DNA from: Telmatospirillum sp.
GTDB lineage: Bacteria; Pseudomonadota; Alphaproteobacteria; CACIAM-22H2
Length of the DNA: 64,000 nucleotides
NCBI GenBank assembly: GCA_020248985.1
Contig: JADCGL010000017.1
Location: forward strand, 186,001-250,000
Direction of reading: 5' to 3'
This document shows positions 46,679-50,510 of this stretch, one piece after another. Under the pieces are notes generated by a model. That model saw nothing but the letters and a program-made list of their open reading frames with translations. It searched no databases and was not told where the DNA came from. The position numbers and the translations under genes are program-made. Positions within the stretch are counted from its first letter, which is position 1; each line of letters begins with the position of its first letter.

Positions 46679-48076
46679 ATGCCCGATTATATCGTCAACG
46701 ACGTGTCGCTGGCCGAATGGGGCCGCAAGGAACTGTCGATCGCCGAATCCGAAATGCCGGGTCTGATGGCGATCCGCGCCGAATACGGCCCGTCGCAGCC
46801 CTTGAAGGGCGCGCGCGTTGCAGGCTCGCTGCACATGACGATCCAGACGGGCGTGCTGATCGAAACGCTGAAGGCGCTGGGCGCCGACGTGCGCTGGGCG
46901 TCCTGCAACATCTTCTCGACGCAAGACCACGCCGCCGCCGCGATCGCTGTCGCCGGGACGCCGGTCTTCGCCTACAAGGGCGAAACGCTGGTCGAGTACT
47001 GGGACTACACGCACAAGATCTTCGAGTGGGCCGACGGCGGCGTGCCGAACATGATCCTCGACGACGGCGGCGACGCCACGCTGCTGATCCATCTCGGCAT
47101 GAAGGCCGAGAAGGACCTCTCGGTCGTCTCGAAGCCGACCAACGAAGAAGAAGAAGTGCTCTACGCCGCAATCAAGAAGCGCGTGGCCGAGCAGCCGGGC
47201 TGGTACAGCAAGGTCGGCAAGGCGATCCGCGGCGTCACCGAAGAAACCACGACCGGCGTGCACCGCCTGTATCTGATGGAAAAGGACGGCTCGCTGCTGT
47301 TCCCGGCCATCAACGTCAACGACTCGGTCACGAAGTCGAAATTCGACAATCTCTACGGCTGCCGCGAATCGCTGGTCGACGCGATCCGCCGTGCGACCGA
47401 CGTGATGATGGCCGGCAAGGTCGCGGTCGTCGCCGGCTTCGGCGACGTCGGCAAGGGCTCGGCCGCTTCGCTGCGCCAGGCCGGGGCCCGCGTGCTCGTG
47501 ACCGAAGTCGATCCGATCTGCGCGCTGCAGGCGGCGATGGAAGGCTACGAAGTGGTGACGATGGAAGACGCCGCCACGCGCGCCGACCTCTTCGTGACCG
47601 CCACGGGCAACGTGGACGTCATCACGATCGAGCATATGCGCGCCATGAAGGACCGGGCGATCGTGTGCAACATCGGCCACTTCGACAGCGAGATCCAGGT
47701 CGCGGCCCTCAAGAACTACAAGTGGAACAACATCAAGCCGCAGGTCGACGAGATCGAACTCGCCAGCGGCAAGCGCATCCTGCTGCTGGCCGAAGGGCGC
47801 TTGGTCAATCTCGGCTGCGCCACCGGCCATCCGAGCTTCGTGATGTCGTCCTCGTTCTCGAACCAGACGCTGGCGCAGATCGAGCTGTGGATCAACCGCG
47901 ACAACGGCAAATACGCGCGCAAGGTCTACACGCTGCCCAAGAAGCTCGACGAAAAGGTCGCGGCCCTGCATCTCGAGAAGATCGGCGTGAAGCTCTCGAA
48001 GCTCACGCCGGCCCAGGCCAAGTACATCAACGTGACCGAACAGGGTCCGTTCAAGGCCGACACGTACCGCTACTAA
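46679..48076 (+). CDS. ahcY: Adenosylhomocysteinase (S-adenosylhomocysteine hydrolase)
   Basis: A 465-residue enzyme that hydrolyses S-adenosylhomocysteine to adenosine and homocysteine and keeps methylation running. Visible motifs are [17 protein letters not shown], the NAD-binding [11 protein letters not shown] and the C-terminal end KADTYRY, in which Lys and Tyr complete the NAD site of the neighbouring subunit. The start follows GGAG; a TTG nine codons upstream is rejected. The last eight codons, the stop and the terminator are duplicated after the inserted gene downstream. Confidence 0.96.
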
Positions 48077-48148
48077 GCGGTACCTGCCGACAGACGGAAC
48101 GGCCGGGCGCTGGCGACAGCGCCCGGCCGTTTTCGTTTCAGTCGCTTG
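48050..48148 (+). repeat. Long direct repeat, copy 1 (end of ahcY plus terminator)
   Basis: Ninety-nine bases covering the last eight codons and stop of ahcY, the CCGCT-ACTA-AGCGG hairpin, the terminator and 10 further bases. It matches copy 2 at 50371-50489 with one substitution (T48081 against C50422) and a 20-base insertion in copy 2. Together the copies bracket a foreign-looking segment. Confidence 0.95.
48099..48138 (+). terminator. ahcY terminator
   Basis: ACGGCCGGGCGCT (48099-48111), loop GGCGAC, AGCGCCCGGCCGT (48118-48130), then TTTCGTTT: a perfect 13-base-pair stem followed by a T-rich tail. It lies within the direct repeat and therefore also occurs after the inserted gene. Confidence 0.9.
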
Positions 48149-48216
48149 CTGTTGAACTAGCTGCTTGGCGCTAAGTCTAACTTTTTTAGCTCAAACAGAT
48201 AACTTCCGATTTTGTT

Positions 48217-48244
48217 TTGATTGTTGGATACACTATGGTACTTT
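48217..48244 (+). promoter_or_regulatory. Candidate promoter of the cassette gene
   Basis: TTGATT (48217-48222), 16 bases, TACTTT (48239-48244), in an AT-rich leader, about 40 bases before the start codon. A GGAGGG ribosome-binding site precedes the ATG at 48283. The cassette can thus be transcribed on its own after the ahcY terminator. Confidence 0.45.
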
Positions 48245-48282
48245 AGATAGTCTTCTTGTGTAAAATTGAGGGAGGGCGAACG

Positions 48283-50358
48283 ATGAGGCTTTCACTTGGC
48301 TTCTTTGTGGTTAGTGTTGCCGTCCTCGTCTCTGAAACTTTATTTGCTCAATCTGCGAATGTTGAGCCAATTCGAATCGCATCTCCATACCCGAAGGATA
48401 CGCCGATTGGCATTGCCGTTGACTCGCTCGCGAGTGATTTACAAAAGAGTTTGGCAGGCTACTACCAAGTAACGGTTGTCAATCGGCTCAACTCTAGTCT
48501 AGACGCAATAAATTCTAAAGAATTTCAATTATCAGTAGTTCCATCTACAGATCTCAATCGAATTAGCGACAATGCATTTTCTTTATATGACCTTCCCTTT
48601 CTATTCGCATCCTCAAGGGAGCTGGCGGCAGTTCAGCAGACGGAAGGAGGCAACATTCCGTTTGCAATGTTTCAAAGGAAGACGGGGATAATTGGACTTG
48701 GGTACTTAAACAATGGCTTTAACAATCTTGTAATTTACTCGGCTGTTAATGACGTCTCGGGCCTAAAGGGCAAAACTGTTAGCGTGTCCTCTCAAGCGAG
48801 CCGAATTGCACTACAGGGATTTGGAGTAACTCCAAGGCAGGTTGTATTTGCTGAACTCAGCTCTGCGGTCCAAGCCGGTGCAATTGATGGATTTGAGAGC
48901 TCGCCAACCCTAGCCTGGGATATACTGAAAAGAAGAGCTTTCGATAAGTCGCCAATTACAGCCTTGCCAATGCGACCAAACGTAGCTGCATTTGTAGTTT
49001 CAGAATTTACCTGGAAATCCCTCTCTTATCGAGCACAAATAGCAATTAAAGAAGCAACGGAGAACGCAGAAATTAAATCTACTACGGAAGCTGCCCGTAG
49101 AGAGGCCGAAGCTGCGAATTTCTTTTTTCAATCTCAGATGACTAACAGCGCAGACTTTGGTGCATTCTATAAGTCAGCCCAGCCAAGTTGGCACCTCCCA
49201 ACAGGCACACCAGAAGCAAGCCGCTTGAATAATATACTTCCTATAATTGAACAAATTCGCGCAAATTCTCCTCCAAGCAATACTCCACCTGGGCGCAGGG
49301 GCTCAATTGAGCCAACTGTGGGAGCGGCTAGCCATGCGGCACTTTCGCCGACAGGTGAGGTGCTATTCGCAACGGACAGAAGAGTAGAGAGCGATCCGGA
49401 CCCGCGCTTTAGAATTGGGTCGAATCGCGGTCAACTCGCGTACGGCGTTACAAGATTCAACATTAGCGCACAACGTCCAATGGGGAATGTCGATTCGAAC
49501 TTGAGTCAGCTAGCTGATGTTGATGAGTTGCGCGAGGCGAGTTTTCTGTCACACGTTAGTGACCGACTTTCTAGGTCACCTAAAAATGAGCTACTAATAT
49601 TTGTTCATGGTTTTAACAACACTTTTGAGGACGCTGCTCGATCGCTGGCATTGTTTAGTGAAGATGTAAAACTTGGTGCGGTTCCTATTTTGTTTAGCTG
49701 GCCGTCCGATGGCATAGCTTTGCGATACCCAAGTGACGAGGAGGAAGTAAGAGCGAGCCGAAACAATTTCTTGATGTTTTTAAGGTCAATTAAGAGTCAG
49801 ACTGGGGCAAATCAGATACATGTAGCTGCTCACAGTATGGGAAGCAGGTTGATTCTAGAGGCGTTAGATCGGTTCGATACAGAGCACGCCTCAGATAACA
49901 ACATTCTTTTTGGACATCTAATTCTCGCTGCGCCGGACGTCTACACTGAAATTTTTTCGCAAACTATAGAGGCGATCAAGCGTCGATCAAAGCGGGTAAC
50001 CCTGTATGTATCAGAAAATGATTCGGCATTGAAATGTTCCAAGAGCTTGCACGGAAATCGGAGACTCGGCGAGGCGGGGAGTATTCCGTTTTTAGCGCCT
50101 GGAATTGATACAATCGATGCTACAAACGTAGAGCCGCCTCCCCCACCCACGAGAGCATGGTGGGATTTTTTAAGCTACCTTTTCATTGACGCATGCCGAA
50201 GTGGTCATGCGTACATGATCCGTAGCATTCGCGTGCAGGCGGATGTCCAAAACTTGGTGCAGAATAATCTTCGTCCGGTTGATCGATACGGAATTATCGA
50301 AAAACAGTCAGGCAGCCTGACATATTGGCAGTTTAAACGAGCAGATAGAGATCGTTGA
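48283..50358 (+). CDS. Exported DctP solute-binding domain fused to a DUF900 alpha/beta hydrolase
   Basis: A 691-residue protein. Residues 1-23 are a signal peptide ending in FAQ. Residues of about 28-310 follow the TRAP-transporter DctP fold (PIRIASPYPKDTPIGIAVDS; the VQAGAIDGFE segment). A Pro-rich linker (about 320-350) leads to an alpha/beta hydrolase of the DUF900/COG4782 type: EVLFATDRRVE, RGQLAYGVTRF, VHGFNNTFEDAA (His442), and the nucleophile elbow HSMGS (Ser518). No TRAP membrane subunits are nearby. Codon use is foreign to the window. It is the only gene in a repeat-bounded insert. Capture of a ligand by one half and hydrolysis by the other is speculation. Confidence 0.85.
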   Translation: MRLSLGFFVVSVAVLVSETLFAQSANVEPIRIASPYPKDTPIGIAVDSLASDLQKSLAGYYQVTVVNRLNSSLDAINSKEFQLSVVPSTDLNRISDNAFSLYDLPFLFASSRELAAVQQTEGGNIPFAMFQRKTGIIGLGYLNNGFNNLVIYSAVNDVSGLKGKTVSVSSQASRIALQGFGVTPRQVVFAELSSAVQAGAIDGFESSPTLAWDILKRRAFDKSPITALPMRPNVAAFVVSEFTWKSLSYRAQIAIKEATENAEIKSTTEAARREAEAANFFFQSQMTNSADFGAFYKSAQPSWHLPTGTPEASRLNNILPIIEQIRANSPPSNTPPGRRGSIEPTVGAASHAALSPTGEVLFATDRRVESDPDPRFRIGSNRGQLAYGVTRFNISAQRPMGNVDSNLSQLADVDELREASFLSHVSDRLSRSPKNELLIFVHGFNNTFEDAARSLALFSEDVKLGAVPILFSWPSDGIALRYPSDEEEVRASRNNFLMFLRSIKSQTGANQIHVAAHSMGSRLILEALDRFDTEHASDNNILFGHLILAAPDVYTEIFSQTIEAIKRRSKRVTLYVSENDSALKCSKSLHGNRRLGEAGSIPFLAPGIDTIDATNVEPPPPPTRAWWDFLSYLFIDACRSGHAYMIRSIRVQADVQNLVQNNLRPVDRYGIIEKQSGSLTYWQFKRADRDR

Positions 50359-50370
50359 TTTCGTCATTCA

Positions 50371-50489
50371 TTCAAGGCCGACACGTACCGCTACTAAGCG
50401 GCACCTGCTGCTACTAAGCGGCACCTGCCGACAGACGGAACGGCCGGGCGCTGGCGACAGCGCCCGGCCGTTTTCGTTTCAGTCGCTTG
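50371..50489 (+). repeat. Long direct repeat, copy 2, with a 20-bp internal duplication
   Basis: The 31 bases 50371-50401 match 48050-48080, and 50422-50489 match 48081-48148. Between them 20 extra bases (50402-50421) duplicate the CTACTAAGCGGCACCTG unit. The copy contains the last eight ahcY codons and stop but no ahcY start, so it is a fragment, not a gene. Confidence 0.95.
50440..50479 (+). terminator. Copy of the ahcY terminator ending the cassette
   Basis: Identical 13-base-pair hairpin and T-rich tail as at 48099-48138, here 82 bases after the stop of the inserted gene. It insulates the cassette from the kinase gene downstream. Confidence 0.88.
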
Positions 50490-50510
50490 GGCAGGCCCGC
50501 ATCGTCTAGG

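What the first reader, a model, noticed from the sequence alone, without database searches (positions are those of the whole stretch)
48283..50358. Fusion of a DctP-type binding domain to a DUF900 alpha/beta hydrolase in one exported protein
Seen: signal peptide, DctP-like half, Pro-rich linker, hydrolase half with His442 and Ser518 elbow. Known: DctP proteins deliver ligands to TRAP membrane subunits; DUF900 proteins are hydrolases of unknown function. Here no TRAP membrane subunits are present. Inferred: a periplasmic protein in which a small-molecule-binding module senses or presents a ligand and the hydrolase acts, perhaps as a defence, toxin or signal-degrading device. I know of no described protein with this architecture.
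Basis: partly seen in the sequence, partly recalled or inferred. Interest (0 to 1): 0.8.

Follow-up and report, generated by a model that had tools for sequence, protein, structure and literature searches.

The report
Mobile ligand-binding and hydrolase fusion protein
One exported bacterial protein really does join a small-molecule-binding domain, of the kind normally used by uptake systems, to an enzyme domain that cuts ester-like bonds; it belongs to a rare, old protein family that turns up in mobile or variable DNA such as a prophage and a restriction-enzyme gene cluster, and its job is not yet known.

Summary
Window 48283-50358(+) is one open frame of 691 aa: Sec-type signal peptide, DctP domain (Pfam E 2.4e-24), Pro-rich linker, DUF900 alpha/beta-hydrolase (E 5.8e-47). 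It is not a frame error. Five more proteins with this architecture turned up, in four other genomes among about 2,000 searched and in one Mu-like prophage. Each half on its own tree groups all six, so one old fusion is likely. Dozens of other DUF900 relatives carry other partners or none. The triad S518-D580-H642 is kept in all six, and both halves are under purifying selection. The DctP arginine that clamps carboxylates is lost in four of six, the window's included, so a classical TRAP receptor role is unlikely here. The gene behaves as a mobile accessory. Here it is a 2.2-kb, 46%-GC insert in a 66%-GC chromosome, with a 99-bp direct repeat of the neighbouring ahcY 3' end on both sides, and congeners have the empty site. 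Other members sit in another such insert, a Mu-like prophage, beside type I restriction genes, and beside a Tae4-like amidase gene. Most likely it is an exported hydrolase whose activity or substrate choice is set by the binding domain. A defence or competition role is suggested by context only.

The parts
48283..50358 (+). DctP-DUF900 fusion gene, 691 aa, GC 46.7%, GC3 0.42 against 0.86-0.90 in neighbours
48283..48351 (+). Sec-type signal peptide, about residues 1-23
   Evidence: hydropathy and A-x-A-like end, by inspection
48391..49191 (+). DctP solute-binding domain, residues 37-303; Ser167 at the place of SiaP Arg147, Asn147 at the other ligand-arginine place
49261..49350 (+). Pro/Ser-rich linker, about residues 327-356; low model confidence
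49534..50076 (+). DUF900 alpha/beta-hydrolase, Pfam residues 418-598 (the fold model covers about 355-691)
49834..49836 (+). Ser518, nucleophile (AHSMG)
   Evidence: invariant in 34 aligned DUF900 rows and in all six fusions
50020..50022 (+). Asp580, likely catalytic acid
50206..50208 (+). His642, likely catalytic base
48051..48149 (+). left direct repeat: last 8 codons of ahcY plus its hairpin terminator
50372..50490 (+). right direct repeat: same sequence with one mismatch and an extra 20-bp tandem duplication; carries the strong hairpin that follows the fusion gene
48150..50371 (.). the insert, 2,222 bp, GC 46%; absent from the same place in congeners G008 and G009

Best explanation
It is an exported two-domain serine hydrolase carried as a mobile single-gene accessory. 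Shown: a DctP-fold half and a DUF900 alpha/beta-hydrolase half with an intact Ser-Asp-His triad in one chain; a signal-peptide-like N-terminus; six distant members; both halves conserved by selection; a foreign-composition insert with duplicated flanks and an empty site in relatives. Inferred: after Sec export to the periplasm the DctP half binds a small molecule and closes, and through the linker this places the ligand or opens the hydrolase pocket, so that an ester-type (lipid-like or small-molecule) substrate is cut only where the ligand is present. Because the carboxylate-clamping arginine is Ser here, the ligand is probably not a simple organic acid held in the classical way. Role, inferred from context only: a fitness gene of the accessory genome, perhaps defence or competition.
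For: Domains. Fold: the hydrolase half models at pLDDT 89.7 and aligns best with PhaZ7 depolymerase and lipases at Z 12-14, with esterases and lipases also found by Foldseek; the DctP half matches TRAP binding proteins at E about 1e-18. Triad kept in 34 aligned DUF900 rows and six of six fusions. Purifying selection on both halves between the two closest members, dN/dS 0.23 and 0.10. The six group together in each half's tree: DctP 84% of bootstraps; DUF900 one group, 0 of 500 shuffles as low, branch support 54. Mobility: GC3 0.42 against 0.86-0.90, repeats, empty site; a second member flanked by a 156-bp, 87% repeat of a neighbouring gene's 3' end; a third inside a Mu-like structural block; two copies similar only over gene plus about 60 bp.
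Against: No ligand, substrate or activity is known for any member. The domain interface could not be modelled (full-length pLDDT 66, pTM 0.52), so coupling between the halves is a guess. Repeats flank only two of six members. Arg147 is kept in two members (G1742, G1627), so a carboxylate ligand is possible for those. Several members are from draft or metagenome-type assemblies. The signal peptide was judged by eye.
Confidence: 0.5

Rival explanations
1. Anti-phage or superinfection-exclusion factor: in the periplasm the DctP half senses an entering-phage or damage signal and the hydrolase half then acts on membrane lipid or another envelope component.
For: One member is an opposite-strand accessory gene inside a Mu-like prophage head block. 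Another lies in a segment with type I restriction genes, transposase remnants and an OLD/GajA-like ATPase. Lone foreign insert in the window. DUF900 is fused to CHAT-like, pentapeptide and TPR parts elsewhere, and to brown-algal ROCO candidate immune receptors (PMC11378527).
Against: No PADLOC model matches. Islands and prophages also carry non-defence genes. No partner gene recurs. No phage test exists. A T6SS-type amidase neighbour points equally to competition.
Confidence: 0.22
2. Scavenging enzyme: the DctP half captures an esterified nutrient and hands it to the hydrolase half; the product is taken up by ordinary TRAP transporters of the host.
For: The host has 19 DctP-family loci, the fusion included. 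The G1742 member lies about 2 kb from a dctP-dctQ pair and keeps Arg147. The hydrolase fold resembles polyester depolymerases and lipases.
Against: Four of six members lost the ligand arginine. Contexts are mobile and not near catabolic genes. The nearby G1742 DctP is only 24% identical to the fusion.
Confidence: 0.22
3. The DctP half is a structural or targeting module without ligand, and the protein is simply an exported DUF900 esterase.
For: Ligand residues are changed; the DctP half evolves about twice as fast as the hydrolase half.
Against: Purifying selection on the DctP half (dN/dS 0.23) and a complete DctP-type model.
Confidence: 0.2
4. An assembly or frame artefact joins two unrelated genes.
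For: Source genome is a draft in 44 contigs.
Against: Six loci share the architecture; the two repeat copies differ in sequence; codon composition is foreign across the insert.
Confidence: 0.02

Closest known systems
DctP-type TRAP solute-binding proteins (PF03480; SiaP, PDB 3b50; 4p47)
   Same: Fold and signal-peptide-like N-terminus; full-length domain match
   Different: Fused to an enzyme; no TRAP membrane gene next to it; SiaP Arg147 place is Ser here (96.8% of the DctP family keep Arg, PMC4646407)
DUF900 alpha/beta hydrolases (PF05990)
   Same: Whole catalytic domain with triad and conserved C-terminal part
   Different: Other members have a lipoprotein-like or TM start, or TPR, pentapeptide or Lipase_3 partners; function unknown (PMC11878206)
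PhaZ7-type PHB depolymerase and lipases (PDB 5mlx, 1i6w, 3icw)
   Same: Closest solved folds, Z 13-14
   Different: 14-18% identity; a fold does not give the substrate
Prophage morons such as exported or membrane superinfection-exclusion proteins (e.g. phage P22 SieA, Ltp lipoproteins)
   Same: Lone accessory gene; one member lies inside a Mu-like prophage
   Different: No sequence relation tested; no exclusion activity shown

Membership tests
DctP family (PF03480) | Pfam match over curated cut-off across the domain | tested here: met
   E 2.4e-24, profile 6-279 of 286
DctP family (PF03480) | Ligand arginine equivalent to SiaP Arg147 | tested here: not met
   Ser167 in the window protein; all 17 stand-alone DctP rows aligned have Arg; four of six fusions lack it
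TRAP transporter receptor | Adjacent DctQ/DctM membrane genes | tested here: not met
   five flanking genes are PTS enzyme I, ahcY, histidine kinase, EAL, DUF2336; a distant partner is not excluded
DUF900 (PF05990) | Pfam match over curated cut-off | tested here: met
   E 5.8e-47
DUF900 (PF05990) | Ser-Asp-His triad | tested here: met
   S518, D580, H642 invariant in 34 aligned rows
Alpha/beta-hydrolase fold | Fold of a confident model matches solved members | tested here: met
   pLDDT 89.7; PhaZ7 and lipases Z 12-14
Known anti-phage system | Match to a curated defence model | tested here: not met
   no PADLOC match
Known anti-phage system | Protection against phage | not testable with these tools
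   needs an experiment
Mobile element with its own integrase or transposase | Integrase or transposase inside the insert | tested here: not met
   the 2.2-kb insert holds only the fusion gene

The most novel reading that the evidence does not exclude
A mobile, single-gene, exported defence or exclusion enzyme in which a former transporter receptor domain senses a small molecule in the periplasm and switches on a lipase-like effector: a periplasmic sensor-effector immune protein made from a TRAP receptor.
Probability: 0.18. Interest if true: 0.8.

Novelty: new variant of a known kind. Interest (0 to 1): 0.5.

Why it matters
It would add an enzyme to the few uses known for TRAP-type binding domains, and give a first handle on DUF900, a widespread hydrolase family without known function: a binding domain whose ligand can be screened should point to the substrate. 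The contexts (prophage, restriction-gene segment, lone insert with duplicated gene ends) make a defence or competition role directly testable.

Tried and rejected
Fusion in plasmids and phages: none by tblastn with three members in plasmids and two in phages. A pattern scan of GTDB contigs gave only DUF900 halves. 'The arginine is lost in all fusions' was my early reading; two later members keep it, so it is dropped. 'All members are flanked by repeats' was also dropped: two of six. An alignment mixing DctP and DUF900 fragments was misaligned and not used. Origin of the DctP half from the neighbouring TRAP operon in G1742: only 24% identity, not supported. The promoter and terminator scan gave counts near chance and missed the ahcY hairpin. 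No empty-site comparison was possible for the G097 insert, as relatives lack the region. Paper searches on DctP or SBP-hydrolase fusions found nothing; the library is partial.

Full report
Observation. The frame 48283-50358(+) encodes 691 aa. Pfam assigns DctP to residues 37-303 (E 2.4e-24) and DUF900 to 418-598 (E 5.8e-47), both over cut-off; NCBIfam agrees on the first half. The N-terminus is a short basic start and a hydrophobic core ending LFA-Q, so export by Sec is likely, judged by eye. The five flanking genes examined are PTS enzyme I, ahcY, a PAS histidine kinase, an EAL protein and a DUF2336 protein, none a TRAP membrane gene.

The insert. GC falls from 66% to 46% over 48150-50371, and GC3 is 0.42 against 0.86-0.90 in neighbours. 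On both sides stands the same sequence: the last eight codons of ahcY, its strong hairpin terminator and about 20 bases beyond (48051-48149 and 50372-50490; one mismatch, and a 20-bp tandem duplication in the right copy). In congeners G008 and G009 ahcY is followed directly by the histidine kinase with one copy. So a single-gene piece entered behind ahcY and the gene end was duplicated. No integrase or transposase lies inside. The mechanism is open: site-specific integration with a lost or trans-acting recombinase, single-crossover integration of a circle, or homology-aided illegitimate recombination would all leave this picture (own knowledge).

More members. P0001 and its profiles were searched in 1,994 genomes, mostly Alphaproteobacteria and Gammaproteobacteria, and in viral contigs. 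Five further fusions were found: G097 (P0002), an IMG/VR contig (P0003), G1444, G1742 and G1627. Pfam finds DctP and DUF900 in each. Identity to the window protein is 45% for G1742 and 23-25% for the others. In the DctP tree the six form one group in 84% of bootstraps; in the DUF900 tree they also form one group, with weak branch support (54) but 0 of 500 label shuffles as low. Both trees pair G000 with G1742 and the prophage copy with G1444. One old fusion, inherited as a unit, is the simplest reading; it is not proven, as several branches are long. Among 35 other DUF900 proteins none has DctP; partners are TPR, pentapeptide repeats, Lipase_3 or a short lipoprotein-like start.

Contexts. G097: AT-rich insert (48% against 67-70%) between direct repeats of 156 bp at 87% identity, made of the 3' end of the adjacent SRPBCC-like gene (the gene name is by eye). 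Thirteen of the 20 mismatches are third-codon changes and both copies read on to the stop, so the fragment looks like a diverged homologue brought in with the gene and not a decaying local copy (inference). IMG/VR contig: between the Mu-like I protease and virion morphogenesis genes, on the opposite strand. G1444: with HsdM and HsdR on one side, transposase remnants next to it, and an OLD/GajA-like ATPase-TOPRIM gene on the other. The last two members are 81% identical, and their DNA similarity is confined to the gene and about 60 bp upstream, as for a unit that moves alone. G1627: next to a Tae4-like amidase gene. G1742: host-like GC, about 2 kb from dctP-dctQ genes. Flanking repeats were seen in two of six fusions and one of about 55 other DUF900 loci.

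Function of the halves. The hydrolase half models well (pLDDT 89.7) and is closest to PhaZ7 polyhydroxybutyrate depolymerase, Bacillus lipase A and CALB (Z 13-14); differences under 1 are ties, and a fold does not name the substrate. The DctP half matches TRAP receptors over its whole length. SiaP Arg147, kept in 96.8% of 6,142 DctP proteins and needed for tight carboxylate binding (PMC4646407), is Ser167 here; it is Ser, Ala and Val in three others and Arg in two. Seventeen of seventeen stand-alone DctP proteins aligned, sixteen of them from the host genome, have Arg. Between the two closest members dN/dS is 0.23 for the DctP half and 0.10 for the hydrolase half, so both halves are maintained and the binding half changes faster.

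Mechanism. I take it to be an exported serine hydrolase controlled or supplied by its binding domain. Shown: both domains, triad, conservation, mobility. Inferred: export, ligand binding, coupling, substrate class. The full-length model is poor, so I make no claim about the interface.

Role. Prophage, restriction-gene segment and lone insert fit a defence or competition gene, and DUF900 occurs at the end of brown-algal ROCO proteins discussed as candidate immune receptors (PMC11378527). This is guilt by association; no defence model matches.

Novelty. Both domains are known; the joined architecture was not found in the papers searched. I rate it a new variant of a known kind.

Noticed in passing
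L169:4776-5762, L170:4800-5762, L172:4800-5762: Stand-alone DctP-like proteins of about 320 aa on large AT-rich viral contigs, without an evident signal peptide and with Ser at the place of Arg147 in at least two (KGKTxS, like the window protein); the three fusions first found match PHROG family 31178 (unknown function) in their DctP halves.
   Followed up: partly
L104:1495-3318(-): DUF900 behind an N-terminal part that looks like a CHAT-type protease domain by eye; in L102 a small helical N-terminal domain instead. Suggests DUF900 as an effector in conflict systems.
   Followed up: no
L017, L018, L069: Pentapeptide-repeat plus DUF900 genes with GC about 10-17 points below their flanks, so likely recent imports too, without flanking repeats.
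   Followed up: partly
L217:11586-12053: Tae4-like T6SS amidase gene of low GC (50%) downstream of the G1627 fusion; upstream are unmatched frames of 852 and 2120 aa.
   Followed up: partly
L182:6929-7549: A 206-aa frame without Pfam or PHROG match shares the opposite-strand accessory segment with the fusion in the Mu-like prophage.
   Followed up: no
window 50391-50428: 20-bp tandem duplication inside the right repeat copy, giving a second partial ahcY stop region.
   Followed up: partly
L070:1322-1387: A DUF900 gene without DctP has a 66-bp, 95% direct repeat just upstream and about 1 kb downstream.
   Followed up: no
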